Positions 412-21,400 of a stretch of DNA of 21,536 bases are shown piece by piece. The notes beneath the pieces were generated by a model. That model searched no databases. It was given only the letters and a program-made list of their open reading frames with translations, and was not told the origin of the DNA. This stretch comes from a virus. The stretch covers positions 1 to 21,536 of IMG/VR virus record IMGVR_UViG_3300007522_000079. One strand, 5' to 3'. Both the position numbers and the translations under genes were made by a program. Within the stretch, counting starts at the first letter, position 1. The number at the start of each line of letters is the position of its first letter.

Positions 412-3400
412 ATGGCATTTGATTTTGTAAGAGCATTTGCTGACGGGCATACCCCTGCGCAAGTAGCGGATTTTTTAGGTAAAGAGTATAAGTTCAACGT
501 TGCAGCTGCTCGTAAAGATGGGCACTCCGACTCTGATATTATCGCGTTTTTAAACACCCCCGAAAAAATGCCTGACGTTTCTTCCCAAAAAGAAGGGTTT
601 ATTCCTAGCCTTAAAGAAGGAGCTAGAGGGGTTCTTAATGCAACTGGGTTAGGTTTGTCCGCTCCTTTCCGATCAGATGAAAGTATACGTGCAGATTATG
701 AAGGGCAACAAAAAGCCGCGGACGAACGAAACGTAAGCCATACCCCTTTTGCTGCGGTACCAGAAGCTTTCAAAAATGAAGGGGTAATGTCTGGGTTAGG
801 TACAACGTACGACGCTACTAGAGATGCATTGGGAAGGTCTTTACCTTATATGGCTCCTACAATTGCGGGGGCTGCGGCGGGGGCTAGAGCAGGGGCGTTA
901 ACTTCTCCTTTTACTGGGTTAGCGGGTCCTGTTGTTGGGGGACTTTTAGGAGGTGTTGCAGGTGGAGTTTCTCAATTTGCAGGTTCTAATATTCAGCGAC
1001 GTATTGATGAAGAAACCCCCGGCCCTTTAGTAACCCCTGAAGTATACCAAACAGCTACAGGCCAAGCCGCATTAGATACCGCTGCCACAATGTTTACTTT
1101 AGGTACAGGCGTAATTGCTAAAGTTATAGGCCGCCCTATTGCAAATATTTCAGAAGGGCAGTTAATGCGTCTGGCAACTGCGTCTTTAGCTAAAACTGTA
1201 GGTACAGGAGCTGTACGAGGTGTAGCTAGTGAACTACCTACTGAAGTTGCGCAGCAAATATTAGAAAGGCGCCAAGCGGGGTTAGATTTAACTTCAGAAG
1301 AAGCTTATGCCGAATATGGTGAATCTGCAGCGGCTGGCGGAGTTTTAGGTGGGCTATTAGGTGGAGCAGGGCAAGTAGTAACAAGAGGTCAAGCAAGAGG
1401 GGCTGTAGAACGAAAAGAATTAGCCGCTCAACAGCTGGAACAAGGAGAACTCGCCAGAATACAAGGAGAACGAGATCAACAGCAAGCGACGGTAGATGAA
1501 GCCCAAGCACAAGCAAAAGCACAAGCCGACATAGCTGCGGAATTAGAAAACTCTAAACTAGGTTTAAATAGAACACTTCCTGGTGTAGATGAAGCAGTGG
1601 GCCCCGTGCCACAACAAGCGGAAGAGGCTTTAGCGGAGGAGCAAGTTCCAGATAATCAGCTAGGTTTATTTAGCTCAAGAGGTAACCCTTCAACTGAAGT
1701 ACTAACTGGTATCCAACGACAAAAACAAGCCGAAAGAGAAGGCGTAGCTGCGCAAAAAAAAGTTGAGCAAGAAGCCACCACCGCCCAAAACCAAATTGAA
1801 AAAGAAGCCGCCGCCTCTGCAAAAACAGCTGCCTTAGAACAGGCTCGCCGAACAAATTTAGCAATAGCTAATGAAAAGCTTGCTACACCAGAAGGCACTA
1901 CAGAGGTAATAGGCGCGTTAAATTCACCCGAGTCCTTTTTTAAAGGGTACTCAATAGCAGACCAAAATAAAATTCGCACTCAGTTACAACGGCGTTTAGA
2001 GGCTTTTAAAACTAAAGATTTAAACTTACAACAACAACGTCAGTCAGAATTCGAGACAGTGTTTGCAGCTATAGAGCCTACCCCAGAAACTGAATTAACC
2101 CCAGAAAAATTAAGTGCTGCAAAGTTAAGCAAAAAGAACCAAATTAAACTAGCAGGCTTAGATTTAACAATAAAAGAAAACTACGACCTAGTAGCCGACA
2201 TAGCTAACAGCAACCAAAACGACGCTGGACCTGCTGCTCGACTTCTTGAAAACATCGTAGAACCTGAGGTAGTACAAGAGCAAACAAACGTAGCTCCACA
2301 AGAGCAAGAAGCCGTTGATGACGAATGGGATAATTATGACACAGGAATTGCATATACAGATTTACCTAAAGAACAACAAACCAGAGTTAGAGATGCCCGG
2401 GAGGAGAATTACCTAAACCAAAACGAAGCAGACGAAATTGCCGGAGTAGCTAAGAGAAATACTAAACTTACTATTAAAGAAGCGGCTAAAGCTTTAGGGC
2501 GTGAAATTGACGCGGCTTTGACTAAAGGTTCTAAGTTAAATCTTACCGCCAACGAAACTCCTCCTGAGGTATTAAAAGCGCTTGTGCAGTTAATTGATGT
2601 TTTAGTGCGGGAGGGCGTGCAATCCCTTAAAGACGTTACATCTCGTATTCGCCAAGACTTAGGAGAAAATGTATTTAGAAGTATAAACCCAAAGGATGTT
2701 TCTAGAATACTGAACCAACAACGGACTCAAGCTAAAAAGCAAGCCGCTAGCAAACGAATTAAACAAGCGGGTGAGGCCAAAGCCCCTGCAAAATCAAGCA
2801 CTTTAGCAGCCCCCGTAGAAGATCTTACAGGCAAAGCAATATTTAAAGATTTGATGCAAGAAAGAGTTAAAGATGCTCGTTTAAATCTAGGAGCCGCGCT
2901 TAAAAAAATAGCGCCTAAGTTATTGTCTATGTACCAGCTAGTAGACCAATTTGGGCGTGAAATGAGTGCGTTAGTGTCATACTCTGAATTAAACGATACT
3001 ATGACTATGGCCCAACAGCGAATCCACCAAAAAACACATAAGTTTGTTTCTGAATGGGGTAGTTTTTCTTATAGTAATTCTGCACAAGCTAAAATTTTAG
3101 GTACGCTAATGGCGGACGCCTCTCGTTTAGGTATTCACCCTGACGAAGATATTAACTCTAAAGGCAACGCCCATTTAACTGCCGAGATGCGGAGGGATGA
3201 ATTTAACAAAATAAGTTCTACTTATAAAAACTTAATGCCTGAAGCAAAACAAATCTATCAAACAGCTAAAGCTATGTTGCAAGATAACTACAAACTAAGA
3301 AGTGACACATACAAAAGCTTAATTGCCGATGCATATAAAGAGGAATTAGAAAATGCATCCCCAAAAGAAACCGCGGCTATTAACGCTAAAATCAATATAG

Positions 3401-5625
3401 CCATCGACGAACATGAAGCTTTAATCGGTGAAATTAAAGGACCGTACTTTCCGCTAATGCGTAACGGGGAATTTATAGTAACAGCAAATTCAAAAGAACT
3501 TAGCGCTCTTAAAGAAAGTTTAGATAACGCTGTTGGTAATGAACGGACTCGTATAGTAAACCTTATACGTATGATGGAAAAAGACGAATCCCATTATCAA
3601 GTTCATGCAGCAGAAAAACGGTCAGAGCAAAACAAAATTACCAAAAGGCTACGGGCCAGGAATATGGACGTGTTAGAAAGTAAATCAGAAAACTATATGA
3701 ATAACCTTAGGGCTAGTTCTTTTGGTGCGATTGATCAGTTGCAAAAAGTATTTGATAAAGAGATTGACTTAGATATTGACCCTGGAGAAATGGCTAAACT
3801 TCGCCAAGCTATGATTAGCAGTGTGCTAGCAGGACTCCCAGAAAACTCAGCTCTAAAACGTCAAATTACTCGTCGGAATATTGCGGGTGCTTCTACTAAC
3901 ATGTTGCAGTCTTTTGCGGAATCAATGGAACGAGATTCGTTTTACCTATCTAGAATGCAATACATGAAGCCTTTATCTAAAGCTTTAATAGATATAAAAA
4001 AGCAGTCTAAAGGGGATATGGCGCTACGAGATGTTTACAATAATGTTCGTGCTCGTTTAAATATGGACATTAAGTACGACAACCACCCAATTCTAAGTAA
4101 GTTATCTGGTATTAGTTCTATCTACCATTTAGGTATTGCACCATCTTATTTACTTACGAATATGACTCAGCCTTTTATGATCACTGCCCCTGAGCTAGCC
4201 GGTAGGTACGGTGCAGCTAAAGCGAGCAAAGCAATTATAAATGCATGGAAAGATTCTCGTAACGCAATTTCTGGAGGCCGTAACGGGAAGTTCTTTAGTC
4301 TATCAGATGCCGATCTAAGTAAAGCTTTTTCGGGAAACGAACTTAAAATGGTTCGAGCTATGCAAGACTTAGGTAAGCTGGATATCGCCAACAATATGGA
4401 CACCGAAGTTTACACTAAAGGAATGAACCCAAAATCAATTAAGTTTTGGACTGTTTTTAATTGGTCTTCTCATAATATTGAACTAATGAACCGCCTAACT
4501 TCTGCTCTTGCCGCGTACCGTTTGGAATTAGAAAAGACTAACGGCGATCAAGATAAAGCTACATCCGCAGCCCGTAACGCGATCGAACGTACCCAGCTTG
4601 ATTATAGCGATACTAATGCTGCTTACTTTATGAAACAAGGGCATTTGGGAGGGTTAAATCGTATCCCTATGCAGTTCAGAAAATACCAGCAAGGTATGAT
4701 TTACTTACTAATTGATAACTTTAAAAAGGCTTGGGCTGGAGACAAAGAAGCTAGAAACGCGTTCTTCTATTTAATGGGTACTCAGTTAACTATGGCAGGG
4801 GTACGAGGAGTTCCAGTTGTTGCGCCTATATTGTTCTTAATGGGAGCTTTTGAGGATGACGATGACCCTAAAGGAGACTTAGAAACTCAAATACAAAATG
4901 CATTAGCCGATTCTGTTGGTCCTGAAGTTGCTAGAACGTTTTGGAAAGGGTTACCTGCTATGATGGGAGTCGACTCAGCTAGTTTAGGCATGGAGAATTT
5001 ATTTTTACCGTTCCCTATGATGAGAGCTTCTGAAATAACAGGCGCAAAATCAGGCAAAGACATGGCTTCTAACCTTTTTTACAATGCTGCAGGGGCTCCA
5101 GTTAGCTTAATGGCTAGGTTTGGAGATGGCGTTTTACTAGGAGCTGAAGGGGATTACCAAAAAATGTTTGAAAAGTTTCTTCCTAAAGTTATAGCCTCTG
5201 GAATTAAAGCGGAGCGTTTAGGAAGTGACGGGTTAACCACTCGTTCTGGAAATGTAGCAATAGAAGCCGAAGAGTTTTCCGCTTGGGATATGGCTATAAA
5301 AAGTTTAGGTTTTGCGCCTTTAAAAGAAACTCAATATTATGCGGCTATGATTGCAAAAGAAACTACAACTCGCGCAATTGATTCTCGTAGAAACATGATA
5401 ATTAAAGCTGCTGCTACTGCTAGGATGAACAACGAAGACCCTTCAGAAGCTATGCAACAACTTAAAGAGTTTAATATTGACCATCCAACCCGCGCAATTA
5501 CAGGGGATTCAATAAGAAGGTCTGTATCTAACCGTAAACGCGATAAACAACAACGAGATGAATCAGGTGTAAGGTTTAATAAACGCGAACGCGACTTAAA
5601 AGAAATTGATAGGTTTACTAGGTAG
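412..5625 (+). CDS. Giant internal virion protein, PLxRFG / large polyvalent protein type
   Basis: A 1737-residue protein starting at an ATG behind a purine-rich stretch (AAGGTAAAGGG). Residues 1-60 form a small N-terminal domain. About residues 145-200 are a Gly/Ala-rich hydrophobic segment that could enter a membrane. About residues 320-500 are Gln/Ala/Glu-rich and probably coiled coil. The long C-terminal part has features I associate with large polyvalent phage proteins: a hydrophobic stretch with NMTQPF followed by PELAGRYG, then PMQFRKYQQG, then PVSLMARFG at about residues 1563-1571, which resembles the PLxRFG motif, and a basic tail. Such proteins are thought to be packed in the capsid and ejected with the DNA. 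No lysozyme or transglycosylase active site was found. The gene ends just before a convergent terminator. Virion location is well supported by type; the exact role is inferred. Confidence 0.85.
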   Translation: MAFDFVRAFADGHTPAQVADFLGKEYKFNVAAARKDGHSDSDIIAFLNTPEKMPDVSSQKEGFIPSLKEGARGVLNATGLGLSAPFRSDESIRADYEGQQKAADERNVSHTPFAAVPEAFKNEGVMSGLGTTYDATRDALGRSLPYMAPTIAGAAAGARAGALTSPFTGLAGPVVGGLLGGVAGGVSQFAGSNIQRRIDEETPGPLVTPEVYQTATGQAALDTAATMFTLGTGVIAKVIGRPIANISEGQLMRLATASLAKTVGTGAVRGVASELPTEVAQQILERRQAGLDLTSEEAYAEYGESAAAGGVLGGLLGGAGQVVTRGQARGAVERKELAAQQLEQGELARIQGERDQQQATVDEAQAQAKAQADIAAELENSKLGLNRTLPGVDEAVGPVPQQAEEALAEEQVPDNQLGLFSSRGNPSTEVLTGIQRQKQAEREGVAAQKKVEQEATTAQNQIEKEAAASAKTAALEQARRTNLAIANEKLATPEGTTEVIGALNSPESFFKGYSIADQNKIRTQLQRRLEAFKTKDLNLQQQRQSEFETVFAAIEPTPETELTPEKLSAAKLSKKNQIKLAGLDLTIKENYDLVADIANSNQNDAGPAARLLENIVEPEVVQEQTNVAPQEQEAVDDEWDNYDTGIAYTDLPKEQQTRVRDAREENYLNQNEADEIAGVAKRNTKLTIKEAAKALGREIDAALTKGSKLNLTANETPPEVLKALVQLIDVLVREGVQSLKDVTSRIRQDLGENVFRSINPKDVSRILNQQRTQAKKQAASKRIKQAGEAKAPAKSSTLAAPVEDLTGKAIFKDLMQERVKDARLNLGAALKKIAPKLLSMYQLVDQFGREMSALVSYSELNDTMTMAQQRIHQKTHKFVSEWGSFSYSNSAQAKILGTLMADASRLGIHPDEDINSKGNAHLTAEMRRDEFNKISSTYKNLMPEAKQIYQTAKAMLQDNYKLRSDTYKSLIADAYKEELENASPKETAAINAKINIAIDEHEALIGEIKGPYFPLMRNGEFIVTANSKELSALKESLDNAVGNERTRIVNLIRMMEKDESHYQVHAAEKRSEQNKITKRLRARNMDVLESKSENYMNNLRASSFGAIDQLQKVFDKEIDLDIDPGEMAKLRQAMISSVLAGLPENSALKRQITRRNIAGASTNMLQSFAESMERDSFYLSRMQYMKPLSKALIDIKKQSKGDMALRDVYNNVRARLNMDIKYDNHPILSKLSGISSIYHLGIAPSYLLTNMTQPFMITAPELAGRYGAAKASKAIINAWKDSRNAISGGRNGKFFSLSDADLSKAFSGNELKMVRAMQDLGKLDIANNMDTEVYTKGMNPKSIKFWTVFNWSSHNIELMNRLTSALAAYRLELEKTNGDQDKATSAARNAIERTQLDYSDTNAAYFMKQGHLGGLNRIPMQFRKYQQGMIYLLIDNFKKAWAGDKEARNAFFYLMGTQLTMAGVRGVPVVAPILFLMGAFEDDDDPKGDLETQIQNALADSVGPEVARTFWKGLPAMMGVDSASLGMENLFLPFPMMRASEITGAKSGKDMASNLFYNAAGAPVSLMARFGDGVLLGAEGDYQKMFEKFLPKVIASGIKAERLGSDGLTTRSGNVAIEAEEFSAWDMAIKSLGFAPLKETQYYAAMIAKETTTRAIDSRRNMIIKAAATARMNNEDPSEAMQQLKEFNIDHPTRAITGDSIRRSVSNRKRDKQQRDESGVRFNKRERDLKEIDRFTR

Positions 5626-12476: not shown

Positions 12477-13142
12477 TTAATTTCTCCCGTTATGGTGACA
12501 GTCTACTACTGAGCAGTATTGCCTACAAGTAAAATTTGGTTTAGGGCTCCAAGCGTTTTTTTCAATAGCTGCTTCTAAACGATTAGTATCTTCTATCCAT
12601 TTCATCCAGTGTATATGTTGCTTATCATGTTCATAGGAAGTTTTTACAAAGTCTTTAACTACGACAAACAACAAACCTGCTTTAATCTTTTTGACGTTTG
12701 GAAAATGTTTAAACACCGCTAAAGATAATATTTCTAGCTGTTTAGTATCTGCATACTTACTGCTTTTACTCGTCTTATAGTCTACTAAAAACGCTTTTTC
12801 ACCTCTAACGATTAACAAGTCAGCTACTCCGCGCCACCACACCTCAGGATCAAAAAATTCACAGGGAGATAAGTCCGCTTTTAGTCCCATTTTATGTTCA
12901 CAATATCTATCTCCTTCTATCTGTTCTAGCGGAGTTAGTTGCTCTTGTAAGAATATAAACTTTTCAGGTATAGGCACTGCATCCCTCATATACAGTTCAG
13001 CGGCTTCATGCACCATTGTTCCATATAGTAAGTGGTCTGCAGGGGGCTCTACTATGTCTTTCTTAATTCTAAGCCTGTAGTACTTTTGAGGGCACTGTAA
13101 GAATAAACTTAAACTACTGTACGACCATGTATATTTAGACAT
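12477..13142 (-). CDS. RecB/Cas4-like PD-(D/E)XK nuclease with Fe-S cysteines
   Basis: 221 residues. Motifs of the RecB/AddB/Cas4 nuclease family are in order: GTMVHEAAE with H45, GVADLL with D108, LVDYKTS with D121 and K123, and KQLEILSLA with Q135. One cysteine near the N-terminus (C17, in LQCPQKYYRL) and three near the C-terminus (C206, C210, C215) match the four ligands of the 4Fe-4S cluster in AddB and Cas4. It should be a metal-dependent exonuclease, likely doing recombination or host-DNA degradation as gp6 does in T7. The start at the ATG 13142 shares one base with the polymerase stop (TAATG) and has GGTGAT five bases upstream; a TTG at 13148 would add only two residues. There is no CRISPR array or Cas1, so it is not read as a CRISPR gene. 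Confidence 0.88.
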   Translation of the reverse strand: MSKYTWSYSSLSLFLQCPQKYYRLRIKKDIVEPPADHLLYGTMVHEAAELYMRDAVPIPEKFIFLQEQLTPLEQIEGDRYCEHKMGLKADLSPCEFFDPEVWWRGVADLLIVRGEKAFLVDYKTSKSSKYADTKQLEILSLAVFKHFPNVKKIKAGLLFVVVKDFVKTSYEHDKQHIHWMKWIEDTNRLEAAIEKNAWSPKPNFTCRQYCSVVDCHHNGRN

Positions 13143-15373
13143 TAACAATCACCATAGCTTTCCCCTACTCCTGATTCACAATCTAACGTTAACCCTGTAG
13201 CCCACTCTGGAACCCAACGCATACAAGATTCTATATACATTTGAGCTTCTTTTTGTTCTGCTATAGGGGCAATGCTTCCTACGGAGTCATGCACAGTTAA
13301 AATCACCCTGTACTTTTTGGCAATCATAACCATTTGCTCTGCGATAATACACCTAGCAATTGCTTGACATAGATTCTCTACTAACTTACCGCCATACAAT
13401 TTAACAGGTCCTTTACGGGTTTTATAAGAATACTCAAGGTAACCCTCGGCATTAGTCCCCTGTGTAAGTGTATCATACTGTTGCCATAACCCGTTAGGTA
13501 ACTTAAACCCTTTTCGTTCTGGATCAAAACTAACAATTCCATCTAACCCTAACGAGCAAGCACTGCCTGAAATCATTGCCTTAATACAAGTTTGTGCTTG
13601 GTTCCATAACTCTGGAATTTTAGCGTATGTTGCACGGTACACATTTATAATACGTTTGCATTCTTCTAGTTCCAGTTCCACCGTTGCCATTTTTAATTGG
13701 CTGTGAAATTTAGCGCTACCCATACCATACCCACAGTTATGTACTATCACTGGCCCCCTGTTTGTTGCTACTACGAATCTGTTCCTCGGCCCTGCATAAG
13801 CTAGATCGTAAGTCATTAATTTCTTTCTGCATTGCCCCTCCTCAAACTCCTCTGGTTTCGCCTGTAATGGTAATGCTTTCACTGCTATTTCCAATGCTTG
13901 AGAGAGTATATTTTCGTCTTGCTCCACTAATTGCGCTTCCTTCCACTGCGTCCCGCACAATATCTTGTGGTCTGGAGTTAACCACATCCCGCAAACGCTC
14001 AATGTTTCTTTTATTCCTTTCTTCACTAATCCTTGGTGGCATACCCACTCCTTTCCATCCCATACTGTATCTTCTAGGGAAACAGTTTCTATCGGTTTCC
14101 ACCCTGTACTACATAACACTAGAGTTCCCTCGGAAATACAACCAAGAATTGTTGTTTTCCCTACAAAGCGTTCGGCAGAGTCTATGGCTTCTACTGGTTT
14201 TAAATAGATACTTGCAGCCATAATTTTATACACGTCTTCTTTTTTTCTAAACGCTTCTGTTAAGTCCTCTTGTCCTGAAAACCAAGCAAGCACTCGGGCT
14301 TCAATTTGCGAAGAGTCACAGTCTATTACTACATACCCTTCAGGGGCTTTCATAGCCTTTTTAAGTTTGTTTGCGTTCTGCCCCCTAGCAGGTAGGTTTT
14401 GTAGGTTTACTTTATCTGACCCACCCCATCTGCCTGTATGTGCGGCATAATATTTAAGTGGTACGGGCATCGTTCCTCGGTTGGCAATCTCCATAAAGCG
14501 TTTAGTTCGGGTTTCTTCCAAAGTAGACTTTACCCCTAACCGAGCTGCCACTATCGATTGTACTCTAAGGTCAGAATGGTCTAGTAATGCATTAAATTCT
14601 TCATCAGTTTTAGCAAATGCATACGTGAGTTTCCCTGTTTTGGGGCTTATTTTTGTAGGTGGGTCTACTCCTAAAGTACGAAGTAATTCCGCTAGTTTTT
14701 CACCTGACATTATTGTTTCTTTGTCCGCGTCTATTGCGGCCATTAGCTTTTCTTTTTTACTAACTACACTGTACATATGTGATTCTAACATCAGCGAATC
14801 TAGTTCAAAAGAAGGCTCTGTAAACATCTTTAATGTCAGGTCAATTACTTTTAGTTCTTTAGGAGGAAACTTAGCCGCTAATATTTTAAATAGATCATGG
14901 GTTAGATTTACATCATTAACGCAATATTCAGCGTATCTGTTAAGTTCTTCCGCACTAAAATCCGCACGGTGTTTCCCTAGCGCATTGCCTACTTCCGTGC
15001 CTTTAACTCCAATATTATATCTCTCAGCTAAAACTTTTAATGACCCCCCTACTTCTACCCCATGCAGTGCTCTAGCCATGCTTAATGTATCTAGTAGTAC
15101 TTTAGGGTGGCAGTCAAAAACAAAAGAAAGAATCGCCCCATCAAACATCGCATTATGCGCAAGCATTGCGGCATTGCTCCAGTCTATTTTCTGAAGTTCT
15201 TTTTTAATCTCTTCTTTAGTGCCTGTGACCCAGTAAGGAGTTTCCTCGTTGATTTTAATACCACACAGTATGGCTTCAAATTTATAGCTTCGGATGTACT
15301 CTTCGGTGGTCACTTTAGTTAAAGAAAAATCCTTATCATAAAATGTCTCAAAGTCTAACGTTACAAAATTCAT
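13142..15373 (-). CDS. Family-A DNA polymerase with 3'-5' exonuclease, interrupted by an intein
   Basis: 743 residues including an intein at 412-546; the spliced polymerase would be 608 residues, shorter than the 704 of T7 gp5. Exonuclease motifs: LDFET with D7 and E9, HNAMFD with N74 and D78, and YCVNDVNLTHD with D154. Polymerase motif A is VVIDCDSSQIEAR with catalytic D353 and E358. Motif B is RFVGKTTILG at 402-411, continuing after the intein as CGYGMG at 547-552. Motif C is TVHDS with H695 and D696. The residue aligned with E. coli Phe762 is Leu410. The ATG at 15373 overlaps the upstream stop (TAATG). It replicates the phage genome, presumably with the primase-helicase encoded downstream. 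The enzyme family is certain. Confidence 0.97.
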   Translation of the reverse strand: MNFVTLDFETFYDKDFSLTKVTTEEYIRSYKFEAILCGIKINEETPYWVTGTKEEIKKELQKIDWSNAAMLAHNAMFDGAILSFVFDCHPKVLLDTLSMARALHGVEVGGSLKVLAERYNIGVKGTEVGNALGKHRADFSAEELNRYAEYCVNDVNLTHDLFKILAAKFPPKELKVIDLTLKMFTEPSFELDSLMLESHMYSVVSKKEKLMAAIDADKETIMSGEKLAELLRTLGVDPPTKISPKTGKLTYAFAKTDEEFNALLDHSDLRVQSIVAARLGVKSTLEETRTKRFMEIANRGTMPVPLKYYAAHTGRWGGSDKVNLQNLPARGQNANKLKKAMKAPEGYVVIDCDSSQIEARVLAWFSGQEDLTEAFRKKEDVYKIMAASIYLKPVEAIDSAERFVGKTTILGCISEGTLVLCSTGWKPIETVSLEDTVWDGKEWVCHQGLVKKGIKETLSVCGMWLTPDHKILCGTQWKEAQLVEQDENILSQALEIAVKALPLQAKPEEFEEGQCRKKLMTYDLAYAGPRNRFVVATNRGPVIVHNCGYGMGSAKFHSQLKMATVELELEECKRIINVYRATYAKIPELWNQAQTCIKAMISGSACSLGLDGIVSFDPERKGFKLPNGLWQQYDTLTQGTNAEGYLEYSYKTRKGPVKLYGGKLVENLCQAIARCIIAEQMVMIAKKYRVILTVHDSVGSIAPIAEQKEAQMYIESCMRWVPEWATGLTLDCESGVGESYGDC
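13736..14140 (-). other. Mini-intein inside DNA polymerase motif B
   Basis: 135 codons, in frame, from Cys412 to Asn546 of the polymerase precursor. It begins CISEGTLVLC with a block A-like pattern (GTLV, GWKPIETVSLEDTVW). LTPDHKILCG at 465-474 carries the block B TxxH motif (T466, H469). TYDLAYAG resembles block F. It ends VIVHN with the penultimate His545 and terminal Asn546, followed by Cys547 as the +1 nucleophile. Removing it rejoins ...KTTILG and CGYGMG..., restoring a normal motif B. With about 60 residues between blocks B and F there is no room for a LAGLIDADG or HNH homing nuclease, so it should splice but not move by itself. The block F histidine seems missing, as in many functional inteins. 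Confidence 0.95.
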
Positions 15374-15750: not shown

Positions 15751-15985
15751 GAACATCTTCTCCTACAAGTGAGTAATGGTTTACGGGGTGTTTTGAACTC
15801 CGCGTGGGTTTACTTAGGGCAACTACTATATACCCTTCCTCTAGTAACCACAACAAATGGCTACTAGCTGTCCTCCGTGCACATCTAAATTCTTTTGCAA
15901 CGGCATCGGCGGTAGCTAAATGTCTCTTTTTTATAAAGTAATATATAGCTTCCCTTCGCCCTTCGGCTAGCGATACGTCTCTCAT
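15740..15985 (-). CDS. Small winged-helix DNA-binding protein
   Basis: 81 residues with a MarR/ArsR-like winged-helix layout. A first helix (RREAIYYFIKKRHL) leads to TADAVAKEFRCARRTASSHLLWLLEEGYIVV at about residues 25-55, which reads as helix, turn, recognition helix and wing strand. A second strand pair follows (HPVNHYSLVGED). Its ATG overlaps the VRR-NUC stop in an ATGA junction, and its end overlaps the next gene's start, so it is part of the replication operon. It may regulate transcription, but no operator was located. The fold is a fairly safe call; the target is unknown. Confidence 0.8.
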   Translation of the reverse strand: MRDVSLAEGRREAIYYFIKKRHLATADAVAKEFRCARRTASSHLLWLLEEGYIVVALSKPTRSSKHPVNHYSLVGEDVHAR

Positions 15986-16287
15986 TTTTCTGCTTCCATA
16001 ATAATTTTAATACAATCCTTTAAATCTTCGATGTTGCTTTCATTTATAACCAAAGCATATCCTCCGTTCTCAGTTATAGATTTTAAGTGTTTTAGTTGCA
16101 AGGCAGTAGGCACCTTAGTTCCAGCTTTACATTCTATGCCTATAAACTTTTTCTTAAAACACGCTACAACATCAGGCACCCCTGAAGCCCCATACCCTCC
16201 TGTTACAGGGTAAAAATAATAAGCTCCCGCCTCTTCTAAAATATTAACTACTTTTAACTTAACTTTCTTTTCAGGTGTGTGCGCCAT
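15982..16287 (-). CDS. VRR-NUC (PD-(D/E)XK) nuclease, possible Holliday-junction resolvase
   Basis: 101 residues, about the size of stand-alone phage VRR-NUC proteins. The signatures are ASGVPDVVACF with D39 after the conserved GxP, IGIECKAG with E52 and K54 forming the ExK pair, and ALQLKHL with Q64. These are the active-site residues of the family, whose studied members act on branched DNA including Holliday junctions or flaps. In a T7-like plan this could do the job of gp3 endonuclease I. The ATG at 16287 has AGGATG seven bases before it. It overlaps the winged-helix gene by four bases (ATGA). The family call is firm; the exact substrate is inferred. Confidence 0.9.
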   Translation of the reverse strand: MAHTPEKKVKLKVVNILEEAGAYYFYPVTGGYGASGVPDVVACFKKKFIGIECKAGTKVPTALQLKHLKSITENGGYALVINESNIEDLKDCIKIIMEAEK

Positions 16288-16808: not shown

Positions 16809-17393
16809 TTACTCCTTTGTTGTTATAGGTTTAGTCCAAACTGTAAACTCGGGGTTTGCCCTGTGCAGGGGCATAATTACCCCAATAACTCGCGTGTCTT
16901 GCCCTTGAATTGCTGCCGCATTTCTACCGTTTTGGTATAGCACTGGGGGATTTGAGTCCGCTCCTGTAGCTTTTTGCACGCTTTTGGCAACTCTACTCAA
17001 TGTGGCAAGGTCGTAACTCCCCACCTCTCCGCTAATTTTGTCAGGGATAATTCGGGCATATGGTGGAAACTTATGTTCTATAGGCTCAAAAACTATTGAG
17101 TCTAGGGCGTACCCGTATTTAGTAGCGCTTAATACTACGAACGTTTCTTTGACCTTAACTGCAACTGCAACGTTGGCTCGGGGTATAACTATCTGCCCTA
17201 TAAACTTGCCTCTCTCTTCAAACGTTGGGGTGCATTTCACCGCTACCAATATGTACCCGTCGGTGCCAGCAATTACCACTTCCTCCTCATTAAGGAAATC
17301 AACACACACCCCCGTAAGACTTTTACGAACATCTCTTTTTGCAGTGGCCTCTAAAGCTCCCGCTAGAAAACTACTACTTAACAAAACTTTCAT
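16809..17393 (-). CDS. Half-length beta sliding clamp-like protein
   Basis: 194 residues, about half of the usual 366 of bacterial DnaN. The N-terminal half reads like a clamp domain: a helix SSFLAGALEATAKRD, then strands ending IAGTDGYILVAVK (the clamp TDG motif). KFPPYARIIPD at 108-118 matches the FPDYxxxxP segment that opens a clamp domain. The end has RVIGVIMPLHR, like the terminal VMPMRL of DnaN. Two clamp-type domains per chain would need a trimer to make a six-domain ring, as in PCNA; this is inference. It has the best SD in the region, GGAGGTG just before the ATG. It may raise processivity of the PolA encoded downstream. The homology is likely, the function moderately so. Confidence 0.72.
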   Translation of the reverse strand: MKVLLSSSFLAGALEATAKRDVRKSLTGVCVDFLNEEEVVIAGTDGYILVAVKCTPTFEERGKFIGQIVIPRANVAVAVKVKETFVVLSATKYGYALDSIVFEPIEHKFPPYARIIPDKISGEVGSYDLATLSRVAKSVQKATGADSNPPVLYQNGRNAAAIQGQDTRVIGVIMPLHRANPEFTVWTKPITTKE

Positions 17394-17643
17394 TCCAGCA
17401 CCTCCGCTGAGATTAGTAGGCTACGCAGTGATTTAAAAAACTGACTGGTAACAAAAACAGTTCCGTCGACATGATTTTTCATTAGCCACTGGTACTCATA
17501 AACAGGTTCTGGCTTTGCAAACTTTTTTCATCTATTTTACTTTCCTCAGGTACTTCTCCTAAACGTGAGTGTAGATGTCCTGTACCACGCTCAGGTATTC
17601 CTCCTAAACGCATATTTAACTGCCATTGTGGTTTGTCTTCCAT
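17390..17643 (-). pseudogene. Frameshifted chimera of two neighbouring module genes
   Basis: The first about 40 codons copy the start of the 18049-18399 gene (MEDKPQWQLNMRLGGIPERG..., with two rather than three of its 15-residue repeats). The rest copies the 18420-18683 gene, with 102 identical bases including AKPEPVYEYQWLMKNHVDG. Near 17521-17529 one base is missing in a run of six A, so the first frame ends after 53 codons (17482-17643) and the second half is in the -1 frame. The shared ERLDKYKRE tail is lost; the second frame ends LISAEVLE at a TGA overlapping the clamp start. The SD has decayed from AAGGAG to AAAGAG. It is most likely a dead copy, although -1 slippage on the A-run would restore a full-length product. 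Confidence 0.8.
17416..17517. repeat. 102-bp perfect direct duplication, left copy
   Basis: Identical base for base to 18485-18586, including third codon positions. It encodes PEPVYEYQWLMKNHVDG...SLRSL in the pseudogene (here) and in the 87-residue gene (there). Perfect identity over 102 bases, beside diverged flanks, points to a recent copying event between genes 1.07 kb apart. Confidence 0.97.
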
Positions 17644-17663
17644 ACATTTCTCTTTTTTAATAA

Positions 17664-18044
17664 TTATTTTGCTTCACGTCTATATTTGTCTAGACGCTCA
17701 AAAAATTCTACTTCGTGGTCTGAATAGTCGTCGAGCATTTCCCCCTCTGTTTTATAAAAAGCAGAAGTATCAACCACGCCAACCTTGTACTTTAATAACC
17801 ATTGATACTCATAAACAGGCTCGTGGTCTGGCGTAAATGTAATATCAACTTTACCTTTACCGTGGAATAGAGAAATTGGTGATTCTTCTGATAACCTGCC
17901 ATCCGCTGTGTACTCTGCATAAGCGCCATTTTTAAAAAAAACTTCAACAGGTAACATACCGAGACGTGCATTTTCTGTGACCCTGCATACTCCTAATTCG
18001 GATGTTACTACTTCATCTACTTCAAATTCTTTAGGTTCTTCCAT
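17664..18044 (-). CDS. Modular paralogue 1: KOW/Tudor-like N-domain plus YEYQWL domain
   Basis: 126 residues from the ATG at 18044, which has AAGGAG seven bases before it, formed by the last codons of the previous gene; a longer frame from 18140 lies inside that gene and is unlikely. Residues 5-70 read as a small beta barrel: EFEVDEVVTSELGVCRVTEN, then VFFKNGAYAEYTADGRLSEES, a pattern frequent in small phage proteins. A TFTPD linker leads to the C-terminal domain EPVYEYQWLLK...ERLDKYRREAK shared by the neighbours. Its C-terminal half is closest to the 19534-19872 gene (same TFTP linker and RLDKYRRE ending). Function unknown. Shared tail plus different front suggests interchangeable modules. 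Confidence 0.78.
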   Translation of the reverse strand: MEEPKEFEVDEVVTSELGVCRVTENARLGMLPVEVFFKNGAYAEYTADGRLSEESPISLFHGKGKVDITFTPDHEPVYEYQWLLKYKVGVVDTSAFYKTEGEMLDDYSDHEVEFFERLDKYRREAK

Positions 18045-18048
18045 TTTA

Positions 18049-18399
18049 TTACTCCTTAACTTCACGTTTATATTTGTCGAGGCGATGTACACTAAATACG
18101 GCATGGGTGTATAAGCTAGAATACTTTTTAAAGACCTCATATATGGTTTTATGCCACCCAGTTATGCAAATAATTTCATGACCGTTCTCAATTAACCACT
18201 GATATTCGTAAACAGGCTCTGGCTTTGCAAGCATTTCTTCATCTATTTTATTTTCCTCAGGTACTTCTCCTAAACGTGTGTTTAAAGGTGCCGTACCCCA
18301 ATCGAGAAATCCTCCTACCTGTGTGTTTACATGTCCCGTACCACGCTCAGGTATTCCTCCTAAACGCATATTTAACTGCCATTCTTTTTTGTCTGTCAT
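18049..18399 (-). CDS. Modular paralogue 2: tandem LNTRLGG repeats plus YEYQWL domain
   Basis: 116 residues from an ATG with GGAG seven bases upstream. The N-terminal 40 residues consist of three copies of a 15-residue unit: LNMRLGGIPERGTGH, VNTQVGGFLDWGTAP and LNTRLGEVPEE. This is encoded by a 45-base in-frame tandem repeat. A KIDEEMLAKPEP linker precedes the C-terminal domain VYEYQWLIENGHEIICITG...VHRLDKYKREVKE. The neighbouring broken copy has only two repeat units, so repeat number has changed in this lineage. The final AAG GAG TAA also provides the SD of the next gene. No enzyme motif is seen. The repeat might act as a flexible or binding segment; that is a guess. Confidence 0.78.
   Translation of the reverse strand: MTDKKEWQLNMRLGGIPERGTGHVNTQVGGFLDWGTAPLNTRLGEVPEENKIDEEMLAKPEPVYEYQWLIENGHEIICITGWHKTIYEVFKKYSSLYTHAVFSVHRLDKYKREVKE
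18267..18375. repeat. 45-bp in-frame tandem repeat, about 2.5 copies
   Basis: Two full units and one partial unit of 45 bases coding the LNTRLGG(I/V)PE-type repeat on the minus strand. The units differ at many positions, so they are old, but keep the 45-base period exactly. The broken chimera at 17390-17643 has one unit fewer. Confidence 0.75.
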
Positions 18400-18419
18400 A
18401 CATTTCTCCTTTTTAATAA

Positions 18420-18683
18420 TTATTTTGCTTCACGTTTATACTTGTCTAAGCGCTCTAGAATTTCGATATGATTACCCATGCTACGTAGGCTACGCAGTGA
18501 TTTAAAAAACTGACTGGTAACAAAAACAGTTCCGTCGACATGATTTTTCATTAGCCACTGGTACTCATAAACAGGTTCTGGCTTTGGTGGGGGTAATGAT
18601 TCCGCTATTACTTTTAAAATATCAGCAAAATTAGCATCATTTATCTCAATACCCATTTGACGCAATTTTTCCCTAACTTTCAT
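18420..18683 (-). CDS. Modular paralogue 3: short helical front plus YEYQWL domain
   Basis: 87 residues. The ATG at 18683 overlaps the previous stop (ATGA). The first 30 residues are a short amphipathic helix pair (KVREKLRQMGIEIND, FADILKVIAESL), followed by a Pro-rich PPPKPEP linker and the shared domain VYEYQWLMKNHVDGTVFVTSQFFKSLRSL...ERLDKYKREAK. Its middle 102 bases were copied into the pseudogene at 17390-17643. It ends with AAGCAAAATAATTATTA, a spacer also found between paralogue 1 and the pseudogene, showing that whole gene borders were duplicated. Function unknown. Confidence 0.78.
   Translation of the reverse strand: MKVREKLRQMGIEINDANFADILKVIAESLPPPKPEPVYEYQWLMKNHVDGTVFVTSQFFKSLRSLRSMGNHIEILERLDKYKREAK
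18485..18586. repeat. 102-bp perfect direct duplication, right copy
   Basis: Partner of 17416-17517. The likely donor, because the gene here is intact whereas the left copy lies in a frameshifted chimera. Confidence 0.97.
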
Positions 18684-18877
18684 TTTATTTTTCCTTTGAG
18701 CTTTGCTGTTTGAGCAGCTCGTCTAGCTATTTCTTTTGCGCCCTGGTGAGGAAAATACCTGTTACAACTAGGTGGATTCTCATAGACTTTTCTTTCTAGT
18801 AGTTCTGTAAATTCGATTACTTGACGCATGCATACAGCTTTAATTTCTTTTCTAAATAGTTTTACTAGTACTTCCAT
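18680..18877 (-). CDS. Unknown small basic protein (65 aa)
   Basis: 65 residues, mostly helical and basic (VKLFRKEIKAVCMRQVIEFTELLERKVYE, then AKEIARRAAQTAKLKGKIK), with two Cys and a short NPPSCNRYFPH middle. It starts inside the end of the previous gene; GGAG is only two bases from the ATG, a close spacing, so coupling probably helps. It ends in an ATGA junction with the next module gene. It does not carry the shared YEYQWL tail, so it is an outsider in the array. No family recognised. Confidence 0.65.
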   Translation of the reverse strand: MEVLVKLFRKEIKAVCMRQVIEFTELLERKVYENPPSCNRYFPHQGAKEIARRAAQTAKLKGKIK

Positions 18878-19179
18878 TTCTCCTTAGTTAATCTTTTATA
18901 CTTGTCTAGGCGCTCTATAAGGTCGCCAGCGTGGTAGTCTTTATGCGCTTCTAATTCGCTTTCATAATAAGAGTCAGTAATTTTAAAAATGCCATTTCTA
19001 CCTTTTAATAACCATTGATATTCGTAAGTAGGTTCCGGCTTTACTCTGAATTTAGCATCAGTCCAACCAAACTCGCGAATATCAGTAACTAAACGCCACT
19101 TTAAAAAAGTTTGGTATTCAACCTCTACCCCATCTAACCATAACCTTACCCATTCTGCGTGTACATGTTTTGGTTTCAT
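18865..19179 (-). CDS. Modular paralogue 4: HAE-W-LDG phage domain plus YEYQWL domain
   Basis: 104 residues from the ATG at 19179, chosen because GGAAG lies eight bases upstream and because it sits just past the stop of the 50-residue gene; the longer frame from 19215 overlaps that gene. The N-terminal half (KHVHAEWVRLWLDGVEVEYQ...WTDAKFRVKPEP) matches a small domain I know from many tailed-phage proteins, usually HAExIKAWADGAxIEY ... P.W....YRIKPE. After that comes the shared VYEYQWL-type domain, here TYEYQWLLKGRNGIFKITDSYY...ERLDKYKR. Function is unknown even for the widespread domain. This gene shows most clearly that the tail has been joined to an unrelated front. Confidence 0.78.
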   Translation of the reverse strand: MKPKHVHAEWVRLWLDGVEVEYQTFLKWRLVTDIREFGWTDAKFRVKPEPTYEYQWLLKGRNGIFKITDSYYESELEAHKDYHAGDLIERLDKYKRLTKEKWKY

Positions 19180-19183
19180 TTTG

Positions 19184-19336
19184 TTACTTCCAATATTCAT
19201 TATCAAAAGGGACAAAGACCGCAGAACTTAAGTCTTGGTAAATCCACCCACGAGGCACTCTTGTTATCTTCATATTATTGTTAACGCACATATATTCATG
19301 AAGCTTTAATGTGTAAATAGTTTTTTCTTTTTTCAT
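19184..19336 (-). CDS. Short paralogue of the 112-residue gene (50 aa)
   Basis: A 50-residue frame starting at an ATG behind AAGGAGAATTAAA. It reads MKKEKTIYTLKLHEYMCV..., then RVPRGWIYQDLSSAVFVPFDN, and ends EYWK at a TAA. It is clearly homologous to residues 1-48 of the 19534-19872 protein (MKKEKTIYTLKLHEHMVV ... VAGGWIYGDSDSAVFVPFDNEF) but stops before the TFTP linker and the YEYQWL tail. So it is either a truncated paralogue or a free-standing N-domain. The strong SD and the clean frame suggest that it is expressed. Function unknown. Confidence 0.7.
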   Translation of the reverse strand: MKKEKTIYTLKLHEYMCVNNNMKITRVPRGWIYQDLSSAVFVPFDNEYWK

Positions 19337-19377
19337 TTTAATTCTCCTTAGTTATTTTATACACGGCTGTGTATAAA
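19295..19377. repeat. 83-bp perfect direct duplication, left copy
   Basis: Identical to 19831-19913. It spans the gene border: the last codons of the upstream gene (YTAVYKITKEN), the stop, the AAGGAG SD and the first codons (MKKEKTIYTLKLHE) of the next gene. The two-gene unit has therefore been duplicated in tandem, 536 bases apart. Confidence 0.97.
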
Positions 19378-19529
19378 TTGTTCCCTTTGCCGTATTGTTG
19401 CACCTCACACCAGCTTTTCCGCTCTGCAATTGCCGCTTCCTCACCGCAGAACAAACATAACTTATAACCTAACTTTGCCATGCCTGTTTCTACATCGTCA
19501 CCAGATTCTTTGCATTGAATTTCCATCAT
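19338..19529 (-). CDS. Small CxxC protein ending YTAVYKITKEN (63 aa)
   Basis: 63 residues from the first of two adjacent ATGs, with AAGGAG seven bases before it; the frame runs further upstream to 19550 but that part lies in the previous gene. It contains KLCLFCGEEAAIAERKSWC, in which the CxxC pair and a later Cys could bind zinc, and ends LYTAVYKITKEN. The last eleven residues are the same as in the 49-residue gene at 19874-20023, and the rest aligns weakly (MxKxxY ... EExA ...). Its end provides the SD of the next gene. Function unknown. Confidence 0.75.
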   Translation of the reverse strand: MMEIQCKESGDDVETGMAKLGYKLCLFCGEEAAIAERKSWCEVQQYGKGNNLYTAVYKITKEN

Positions 19530-19533
19530 GTTA

Positions 19534-19872
19534 TTACTCCTTAACTTCACGTCTATATTTATCTAGACGCTCTACAAGTTCTACCTTTCCACTATCGAGC
19601 TGACCAACCTCATGCAATCTATAATAGTCAGTGGTGCCGAGAGTTCCATCCTTGTATCTTACTAACCACTGATACTCATAAACAATCTCTGCCTCTGGCG
19701 TGAATGTAACATTTACTTTGCCTTCCATAAATTCATTGTCAAAAGGTACAAAGACCGCACTATCGCTATCTCCATAAATCCAGCCGCCCGCCACTCTTGT
19801 TATAAGTAATCCAGCGTTAACAACCATATGTTCATGAAGCTTTAATGTGTAAATAGTTTTTTCTTTTTTCAT
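19534..19872 (-). CDS. Modular paralogue 5: MKKEKTIYTLKLHE front plus YEYQWL domain
   Basis: 112 residues from an ATG with AAGGAG seven bases upstream. The front (1-55) is a small beta-rich domain, KTIYTLKLHEHMVV ... RVAGGWIYGDSDSAVFVPFDNEFMEGKV, which recurs alone as the 50-residue protein at 19184-19336. Next is VTFTPEAE, then the shared tail VYEYQWLVRYKDGTLGTTDYYR...ERLDKYRREVKE, closest to that of paralogue 1 (17664-18044). It is the rightmost gene carrying the tail. No catalytic residue is visible; the Tyr/Trp-rich tail looks like a small protein- or nucleic-acid-binding fold, which is only a guess. Confidence 0.8.
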   Translation of the reverse strand: MKKEKTIYTLKLHEHMVVNAGLLITRVAGGWIYGDSDSAVFVPFDNEFMEGKVNVTFTPEAEIVYEYQWLVRYKDGTLGTTDYYRLHEVGQLDSGKVELVERLDKYRREVKE

Positions 19873-19913
19873 TTTAATTCTCCTTAGTTATTTTATACAC
19901 GGCTGTGTATAAA
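19831..19913. repeat. 83-bp perfect direct duplication, right copy
   Basis: Partner of 19295-19377, across the border of the 49-residue and 112-residue genes. Confidence 0.97.
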
Positions 19914-20023
19914 ATGTTTCTTCTTCCTTGGGTTTCCTGTTCATATAGAGCATCCTTGCATAACTGCATTACTGCTAATTCTTCTGGCATTAAGCCAACC
20001 CCTACATACCTAACTTTAACCAT
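19874..20023 (-). CDS. Small paralogue ending YTAVYKITKEN (49 aa)
   Basis: A 49-residue frame starting MVKVRYVGVGLMPEELAV and ending ILYTAVYKITKEN. It aligns over its length with the last 47 residues of the 19338-19529 protein, without its CxxC. No good SD precedes the ATG, which lies 22 bases inside the end of the 26-residue gene, so it is probably translated by coupling. The last codons create the AAGGAG SD of the 112-residue gene. The paralogy makes a chance frame unlikely. Function unknown. Confidence 0.6.
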   Translation of the reverse strand: MVKVRYVGVGLMPEELAVMQLCKDALYEQETQGRRNILYTAVYKITKEN

Positions 20024-20096: not shown

Positions 20097-20258
20097 TTAT
20101 TCATGCTCTTTTATTATGTCGTATTTAACTATCTCAAGTGCGCCGATAACTTCTGCTAGCGCAAACCCCACGCCTCTTACATACACCTCAGCTTTGATCG
20201 CATCTACCATCTCTTGTATATCTTTTTTTGCTACTGGAAACTTAAGTATGTTAGTCAT
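20097..20258 (-). CDS. Unknown small protein (53 aa)
   Basis: 53 residues from an ATG behind AGGAAG, one base past the stop of the previous gene. The sequence is largely alpha-helical: KFPVAKKDIQEMVDAIKAE, VYVRGVGFALAEVIGALEIVKYDIIKEHE. The middle part is hydrophobic but interrupted by charges, so more likely a helical bundle or dimer than a membrane anchor. No motif or family recognised. Good SD and tandem packing support it as a gene. Confidence 0.6.
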   Translation of the reverse strand: MTNILKFPVAKKDIQEMVDAIKAEVYVRGVGFALAEVIGALEIVKYDIIKEHE

Positions 20259-20679: not shown

Positions 20680-20949
20680 TTATTCTCCGTATTCAATCTC
20701 CATTAGCATTTGTATAGTATGTATTGCTTTCTCTAAATCTTTTCTGCCATTTTTACTCCTAAATCTTAAAATGTATTTTATAGCTGTATGCTGGCAGGCA
20801 TCTAAGTTGTTTAGCATACTAAATTCTATAGGCTGAATAGCGTACTCTTTGTAATGCTCTCCATCTATTTGAGTTTGTAACGCTGTTTTCTTTCTTTCTT
20901 GTGGTTCTAACGCTGAGTTTTTTCTTGCTTGTGGGTCTTCAATAATCAT
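20680..20949 (-). CDS. DUF3310 protein (T7 gp1.7 nucleotide kinase-like family)
   Basis: 89 residues from an ATG behind AAGGAAAAG. Residues 28-85 (DGEHYKEYAIQPIEFSMLNN, then CQHTAIKYILRFRSKNGRKDLEKAIH) follow the DUF3310 pattern HYxxxxIQPIEF ... C..xAIKYILRxxxKNG..DLEKA. T7 gp1.7, a protein of this family, is a small nucleotide kinase; many short phage members are untested. It may adjust dNTP supply or the response to nucleotide analogues. The N-terminal 24 residues are two copies of a ten-residue unit, DPQARKNSAL and EPQERKKTAL, unlike the rest of the family as I know it. Family membership is firm; enzymatic activity in this short form is not. Confidence 0.88.
   Translation of the reverse strand: MIIEDPQARKNSALEPQERKKTALQTQIDGEHYKEYAIQPIEFSMLNNLDACQHTAIKYILRFRSKNGRKDLEKAIHTIQMLMEIEYGE
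20878..20937. repeat. 30-bp in-frame tandem duplication in the DUF3310 gene
   Basis: Two imperfect 30-base units, encoding DPQARKNSAL and EPQERKKTAL on the minus strand. They expand the region before the DUF3310 domain without breaking the frame. Confidence 0.7.
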
Positions 20950-20971: not shown

Positions 20972-21400
20972 CTACCATCCTAAAAACAACGACACCCCAC
21001 TTTGCATGCCACCATACGGGTGGGGTTTAATTTCATGCTTCTTTTTTTCTCTAGGTGGCGGAACCACCGTTGACATTTTAAACACTCTGCATACAGCTAA
21101 AGCTTCTGGTGGTAACGGCAACTCTTTATACGGAGGAGTTTCAATATCTTCAATCACCCTAGGTATATAAGGTGTTTTACCTAAGTTATACACTGCATAC
21201 CGTACCCGTCCATCGAAAGCAAAAGCTTTAGTTATGTGGTTTAAAGGTTCTAATTGGCCTAGGTAATGAGTAACTTTGTTTTTAGATAAATTTAAGTCTC
21301 GAACTACATCTCCTATGCTTACGTTTCTATTATCTTCTAAGTACTCATAAATCAGCGTTCTGTTTCTTTCTGCTTCTTTAAGTCTTTCTATGTGTTTCAT
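20972..21400 (-). CDS. Winged-helix DNA-binding protein with disordered tail
   Basis: 142 residues; the ATG overlaps the previous stop in an ATGA junction. Residues 1-70 form a winged helix: a first helix ERNRTLIYEYLEDN, then VSIGDVVRDLNLSKNKVTHYLGQLE as the helix-turn-helix, then strands ITKAFAF and VRYAVYNLG of the wing. The rest is Pro-rich (TPPYKELPLPPEA, VVPPPREKKKHEIKPHP) and likely disordered. A very similar layout appears in the gene at 21397-21536, so these may be paralogous regulators. A transcriptional role in early phage gene control is plausible; no target site was identified. Confidence 0.8.
   Translation of the reverse strand: MKHIERLKEAERNRTLIYEYLEDNRNVSIGDVVRDLNLSKNKVTHYLGQLEPLNHITKAFAFDGRVRYAVYNLGKTPYIPRVIEDIETPPYKELPLPPEALAVCRVFKMSTVVPPPREKKKHEIKPHPYGGMQSGVSLFLGW

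What the first reader, a model, noticed from the sequence alone, without database searches (positions are those of the whole stretch)
17390..19872. Array of six modular genes with one shared C-terminal domain and different N-termini
Seen: genes at 17664-18044, 18049-18399, 18420-18683, 18865-19179 and 19534-19872, plus the broken one at 17390-17643, share PEPVYEYQWL (the five intact ones also ERLDKYK(R)RE) behind unrelated fronts: a beta-barrel-like domain, a 15-residue repeat, a helix pair, a HAE-W-LDG domain and a MKKEKTIYTLKLHE domain. Inference: a common docking or scaffold tail carries variable effectors, or the tail is a recombination handle for swapping fronts. An array of this density in 2.5 kb is unusual and may be an uncharacterised anti-host or counter-defence toolkit.
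Basis: partly seen in the sequence, partly recalled or inferred. Interest (0 to 1): 0.78.

Follow-up and report, generated by a model that had tools for sequence, protein, structure and literature searches.

The report
Phage gene array sharing one tail
A bacterial virus carries a short row of small genes in which one conserved protein tail has been attached to five different front parts, and a nearly identical sister virus shows the row growing or shrinking by recombination, so it is a clear, recent example of a phage assembling new proteins from parts whose jobs are still unknown.

Summary
Five intact genes plus one broken copy, in the early/replication region of an uncultivated phage, share a roughly 52-residue C-terminal domain behind five kinds of front. 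The tail is a real protein domain under purifying selection: it has 14 invariant residues, 12 of them encoded by varying synonymous codons. It is predicted as a small three-stranded beta unit after a flexible linker, and no library matches it. By sequence it was found only in this phage, a sister contig and one other phage.

Two fronts are widespread phage domains that normally lack this tail. One is stand-alone. The other usually ends in a different C-terminus, which this phage has replaced.

Recombination is documented. The broken copy joins a gene-2-like front to a 102-bp exact copy of part of gene 3's tail. The other phage pairs a gene-5-type front with a gene-2-type tail. A sister contig, almost identical over 6 kb around the array, differs by 711 bp, with the crossover in a 27-bp identical block.

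Domain mosaicism is the known kind; the tail and array are a new variant. A shared docking or pairing role for the tail is the best guess but untested. Nothing tested indicates a counter-defence function.

The parts
17664..18044 (-). g1: 126 aa; front not found elsewhere + GKVDITFTP linker + tail (tail about 17664-17825)
18049..18399 (-). g2: 116 aa; front with three 15-aa repeats + tail (tail about 18049-18222)
18420..18683 (-). g3: 87 aa; short front + tail (about 18420-18581); source or recipient of the 102-bp identical block
18865..19179 (-). g4: 104 aa; HAE..W.DG front (widespread phage domain) + tail (about 18865-19038) in place of the front's usual C-terminus
19534..19872 (-). g5: 112 aa; IYxLKLHE...TRVxGGWIY...FVPFDNEF front (widespread, mostly stand-alone phage domain) + linker + tail (about 19534-19692)
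17390..17643 (-). broken chimera: g2-like front (ORF 17482-17643) joined to a truncated, out-of-frame piece of g3-type tail
   Evidence: same broken tail present in sister contig L008
17416..17517 (-). 102-bp block 100% identical to 18485-18586 (g3 tail)
19184..19336 (-). tail-less paralogue of the g5 front (50 aa, 82% nt identity)
17541..17567 (-). 27-bp block CACGTTTAGGAGAAGTACCTGAGGAAA, identical at 18252-18278; crossover site of the 711-bp difference seen in L008
18252..18278 (-). partner copy of the 27-bp crossover block in g2
18680..18877 (-). 65-aa ORF inside the array, no tail
19338..19550 (-). 70-aa ORF inside the array whose 3' end overlaps the hairpin/Shine-Dalgarno leader repeat
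16809..17393 (-). sliding-clamp-like protein directly downstream; its start codon overlaps the end of the broken tail frame

Best explanation
This is a recombination-diversified array of small early phage proteins. A narrowly distributed C-terminal beta domain of about 52 residues has been joined to five unrelated front domains, at least two of which are common small phage domains that normally lack it (shown). The array gains, loses and reshuffles genes by homologous recombination between tail and repeat sequences within the array and with related phages (shown by the chimeric copy, the front/tail reassortment in a second phage and the 711-bp difference in a sister contig). The tail is retained as a functional protein module, most likely a common partner-binding or self-pairing surface that brings different fronts to the same partner (inferred; no partner known). 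Expression together as one early operon upstream of the replication genes is inferred from gene order and tight spacing.
For: Shared tail. Fronts unrelated. Purifying selection on protein: dN/dS 0.15-0.59 in 14 measurable pairs, and 12 of 14 invariant residues use more than one synonymous codon. Autonomous module: tail predicted as strand-strand-loop-strand alone (pLDDT 77.5) and as a separate beta unit after a low-confidence linker in full-length g5, whose front is modelled at pLDDT 90-96. Fronts exist without the tail: g5-type front in 74 viral loci, tail only in the four loci of the two phages already known; HAE front has 373 relatives, none of the 80 examined has the tail and at least 38 of 65 distinct ones end in the usual ...FDGETGKLKSAEV C-terminus, and the second phage's own copy ends in a like way. 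Reassortment: the second phage's tail groups with g2's tail (bootstrap 92; 1814 of 2000 resamplings) although its front is the g5 type (69% aa). Array change: L008 matches the window from about 15.06 to 21.41 kb except for isolated changes at 18330 and 20014 and the 711-bp difference, with the crossover in a 27-bp identical block.
Against: Only two independent phages carry the tail, so 'many fronts' rests on one array. The tail's partner and biochemical role are not shown by anything here; model confidence is moderate and no fold match is significant. The array change rests on one sister contig, and short repeats can be misassembled, although the same broken tail and a nearby private SNP in L008 speak for a real genotype. 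The L011/g2 tail grouping rests on about 50 codons.
Confidence: 0.62

Rival explanations
1. The tail is merely a DNA recombination handle (selfish or neutral repeat) and has no function as a protein; its spread reflects homology-driven copying.
For: Exact 102-bp copy between g3 and the broken copy; recombination at short identical blocks; in g2, g4 and g5 the tail's 3' end includes a Shine-Dalgarno-like AAGGAG, so a copied tail end can carry a useful junction to the next gene.
Against: Tails are only 51-68% identical as DNA but keep the same residues: dN/dS below 0.6 in all measurable pairs and synonymous variation at nearly every invariant residue. A pure DNA handle predicts the reverse.
Confidence: 0.12
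2. The array is a counter-defence or host-takeover toolkit: each front hits a different host target and the tail is a shared delivery or inhibitor module.
For: Location among small genes upstream of replication genes; recombination-driven copy-number change is how T4 amplifies an anti-defence gene (PMC9391042); the weak best structural neighbours of the tail model include phage inhibitor proteins p56 and Dmd, at Z 3.6 and 2.4.
Against: No match to the defence library (that library holds defence, not anti-defence, proteins); Z below 8 is not evidence of relation (note); no defence or host target identified.
Confidence: 0.2
3. The tail itself is the active domain and the fronts are passive leftovers of fusion events.
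For: The tail is the only part conserved across the five proteins.
Against: The g5 and HAE fronts are conserved across very diverse phages without the tail, so they must have functions of their own.
Confidence: 0.1
4. Assembly artefact: tandem repeats joined wrongly in the metagenome contig.
For: Both contigs are metagenomic; the repeats are short and alike.
Against: The five tails differ by about half their residues, so they cannot be copies made by an assembler; gene order outside the 711-bp difference and the same broken tail are seen in two contigs; a tail of the same family occurs in a distinct phage seen in three metagenomes.
Confidence: 0.04

Closest known systems
Domain mosaicism (fragment shuffling) in phage proteins, Smug et al. 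2023 (PMC10684548)
   Same: Otherwise unrelated phage proteins share a homologous fragment, and shuffling is ongoing.
   Different: [quoted passage not shown] here one tail sits on five tiny unknown proteins side by side in one apparent operon, and a broken intermediate and an array-length variant are visible.
[quoted passage not shown] 2022 (PMC9391042)
   Same: Gene copy number in a phage genome changes by homologous recombination between short repeats.
   Different: There a whole locus is amplified as tandem copies under selection by a known defence; here the copies are diverged and parts (fronts, tails) are exchanged; no selecting defence is known.
HAE..W.DG small phage proteins (PHROGs 34112, 13152, 15048, 21668, 21375; unknown function)
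   Same: The front of g4 belongs with these proteins, whose shared domain already appears at different positions in different PHROG families.
   Different: The usual C-terminus is replaced by the tail described here.
IYxLKLHE / TRVPGGWIY small phage proteins (no Pfam or PHROG model matched)
   Same: The fronts of g5 and its tail-less neighbour belong to it.
   Different: Elsewhere mostly stand-alone proteins of about 45-85 residues, never seen with this tail except in the second phage.

Membership tests
Phage domain mosaicism (shared fragment, unrelated remainder) | Homologous fragment shared by proteins whose other parts are unrelated | tested here: met
   Tails align with 14 invariant residues; fronts score at or near shuffle level apart from the g1/g5 linker
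Phage domain mosaicism (shared fragment, unrelated remainder) | Fragment of at least 50 residues and 30% identity (part of the sequence-based criterion of PMC10684548) | tested here: met
   52-57 residues, 37-57% identity; the paper's further criteria (coverage at most 50%, profile probability at least 95%) were not computed here
Phage domain mosaicism (shared fragment, unrelated remainder) | Evidence of recent shuffling | tested here: met
   102-bp exact block in a chimera; front/tail conflict in L011; array-length difference in L008
HAE..W.DG phage proteins (g4 front) | N-terminal HAE..I..W.DG domain | tested here: met
   Front aligns with its relatives in viral contigs
HAE..W.DG phage proteins (g4 front) | Usual ...FDGETGKLKSAEV C-terminus | tested here: not met
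   g4 has the YEYQWL tail instead; the family itself is variable there, so this does not exclude membership of the front domain
Counter-defence toolkit | Member proteins related to known anti-defence or defence-interacting proteins | tested here: inconclusive
   No match in PADLOC, Pfam, NCBIfam, PHROGs, but PADLOC does not cover anti-defence proteins
Counter-defence toolkit | Restores phage growth on defence-bearing hosts | not testable with these tools
   needs experiment
p56-type or Dmd-type small phage inhibitors (tail fold) | Same fold as p56 or Dmd | tested here: inconclusive
   Z 3.6 (rmsd 2.4, 41 aligned) and Z 2.4 (rmsd 3.4, 44 aligned) only

The most novel reading that the evidence does not exclude
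The tail is a phage-specific plug: a common docking or pairing domain that lets one phage attach many unrelated small effector domains to a single host or phage hub, with recombination in the array continually supplying new front/tail combinations.
Probability: 0.25. Interest if true: 0.72.

Novelty: new variant of a known kind. Interest (0 to 1): 0.5.

Why it matters
How phages invent their many small unknown early proteins is an open question. Here the building parts, a failed intermediate (the broken chimera), a second phage with a different front/tail pairing, and two array lengths on nearly identical backgrounds are all visible in 2.5 kb. The tail also gives a handle for experiments: if it binds one partner, pulling it down would assign a common target to five unknown proteins at once, and two of the fronts belong to domain families found in many other phages.

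Tried and rejected
Library searches with tail and full proteins in Pfam, PHROGs, NCBIfam and PADLOC gave no credible family. PDB sequence search with the tail profile: best E 0.19, taken as chance. Foldseek against PDB and viral models: nothing below E 0.29 for either model; VIA-align best Z 3.6 to p56, treated as a lead only. tblastn of the array proteins in 50,697 phage records: only the fronts of g5 (Nekkels phages, E 4e-3) and g4 (E 0.5) gave meaningful hits; hits for g1, g2, g3 and the tail alone had E of 2 or worse, and those inspected were unconvincing. Tail search in 84,980 bacterial and archaeal genomes: none confirmed. Tail profile over 100 whole phage contigs that carry the g5 or HAE fronts: two hits at E 0.02, one with an internal stop and one partial, both judged chance. 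C-termini of HAE proteins that look vaguely like the tail (e.g. L155, L124) gave hhalign probabilities of about 1% at best, so no homology is claimed. A MAFFT alignment mixing tail fragments with fronts misaligned them and was discarded. Handle-list limits stopped two calls (68, 71), which were then split.

Full report
WHAT WAS CHECKED. The window is a 21,536-base virus record with no near relative among 50,697 phage records. Almost all genes run on the minus strand: a winged-helix protein (20972-21400), a DUF3310 protein (20680-20949), small ORFs, the array, then a sliding-clamp-like protein (16809-17393), a nuclease-like protein (15982-16287), a family A-like DNA polymerase (13142-15373), an exonuclease, a helicase and a primase-like protein. 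The polymerase is most similar (34% and 31%) to Rhizobium phages RHph_TM and Pseudomonas phage KPP25 relatives. The array therefore sits just upstream of the replication genes.

THE OBSERVATION. Their C-termini of 52-57 residues align with 14 invariant residues (E, YEYQWL, RLDKY, R, K). The sharing is far above chance, while the parts in front of it are hardly more alike than shuffled sequences, with one exception: g1 and g5 also share a linker of about ten residues. The array also holds a tail-less copy of the g5 front (19184-19336) and two other small ORFs.

THE TAIL IS A PROTEIN DOMAIN. Tails are 51-68% identical as DNA. dN/dS is 0.15-0.59 in the 14 pairs where it could be estimated (one pair was saturated), and 12 of the 14 invariant residues are encoded by more than one synonymous codon. 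This is selection on protein, not a DNA repeat. Alone it is modelled as strand-strand-loop-strand (mean pLDDT 77.5, six sequences). In full-length g5 the front (about residues 1-45) is modelled at pLDDT 90-96, residues 51-60 at about 49, and the tail again as three strands; the low pTM (0.44) leaves their mutual placement open. No sequence or structure library gives a significant match.

WHERE THE TAIL OCCURS. A scan of 2.9 million viral contigs with the tail found one sister contig (L008) and one further phage represented by three contigs (L009-L011). The scan starts from short conserved motifs, so diverged tails could be missed. No confirmed hit came from 84,980 bacterial and archaeal genomes, nor from profile searches of 100 whole phage contigs carrying the g5 or g4 fronts. 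The tail thus appears confined to a narrow set of phages, within the reach of these searches.

WHERE THE FRONTS OCCUR. The g5 front (IYxLKLHE ... TRVPGGWIY ... FVPFDNEF) was found in 74 viral loci and seven genome contigs, most of the latter from Flavobacteriia-type hosts. In the viral loci it is mostly a stand-alone protein of about 45-85 residues, and it bears the tail only in the two phages already named. The g4 front (HAE..I..W.DG) has at least 373 relatives; of the 80 examined (65 distinct) none bears the tail and at least 38 end in the usual ...FDGETGKLKSAEV C-terminus. The second phage's own g4-type protein also ends that way. So in this phage the tail has taken the place of the usual C-terminus, and fronts and tail are separable parts.

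RECOMBINATION SEEN DIRECTLY. First, the broken copy is a chimera: a g2-like front joined to a 102-bp exact copy of part of the g3 tail, cut short at the clamp gene and out of frame with the front. Second, the second phage pairs a g5-type front (69% identical) with a tail that groups with g2's (bootstrap 92; nearest in 1814 of 2000 codon resamplings). Third, L008 matches the window from about 15.06 to 21.41 kb with only isolated changes (18330, 20014) except in the array, where 711 bp (the g2 tail, all of g1 and the broken copy's start) is absent and the join lies in a 27-bp block identical in g2 and the broken copy. Direction (loss in L008 or gain in the window) is not determined. The same broken tail is present in both contigs.

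MECHANISM. Shown: modular make-up, protein-level conservation of the tail, shuffling and array-length difference. Inferred: common early transcription, and a common role for the tail. A conserved add-on surface retained on unrelated fronts is best explained as a shared partner-binding or pairing module; enzymatic activity seems unlikely for so small a domain, but this is a judgement, not a test. Structural neighbours p56 and Dmd (phage inhibitors) at Z 3.6 and 2.4 are too weak to use.

COMPARISON WITH KNOWN SYSTEMS. Fragment sharing between unrelated phage proteins and ongoing shuffling are established (PMC10684548). Copy-number change by recombination between short homologies is established in T4, where it amplified the ToxN-inhibitor gene tifA (PMC9391042). 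What is new here is the tail itself, its presence on five fronts in one apparent operon, and the visible intermediates.

VERDICT. A real feature, a new variant of a known kind. The strongest part is the evolutionary evidence; the functional part is a well-defined open question. No counter-defence claim is warranted from these data.

Noticed in passing
window about 19343-19378 and 19879-19914 (minus strand); L008:699, 3981, 6666, 7202: A 36-bp repeat TTTATACACAGCCGTGTATAAAATAACTAAGGAGAA, a perfect 9-bp hairpin followed by a Shine-Dalgarno sequence, lies just before the start codons of four genes in L008 (two of these copies are in the window); predicted RNA hairpin -8.2 kcal/mol, z -3.75. It may be a shared leader or operator and also supplies the LYTAVYKITKEN ends of two small ORFs.
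   Followed up: partly
L008:2128-3222: A second tandem array in the same phage: four paralogues with different N-termini and a shared ALRW...FG..VP ... LTQKA(I/L)D.IKES core, two of them 82% identical over 298 bp. The early region seems prone to such arrays.
   Followed up: partly
window 20014: A one-base difference from L008 shortens the ORF upstream of g5 (69 aa in L008, 49 aa in the window).
   Followed up: partly
window 412-5625: A 1737-aa ORF, on the strand opposite to the rest, with LPD39 and DarB-like similarity, probably a large injected or virion-associated polyvalent protein.
   Followed up: no
window 16809-17393: The clamp-like protein scores best against a PHROG called RusA-like resolvase but against sliding-clamp models in Pfam and NCBIfam; the PHROG name may be wrong.
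   Followed up: no
window 20097-20258; L051:2885-3088: A 53-aa ORF near the array has a relative (E 4e-6) next to a g5-type front in another phage, hinting at a conserved neighbourhood of small unknown genes.
   Followed up: no
L133:1770-2222, L180:203-607: In some phages the HAE front is itself preceded by another small domain, so this domain also moves to internal positions.
   Followed up: no
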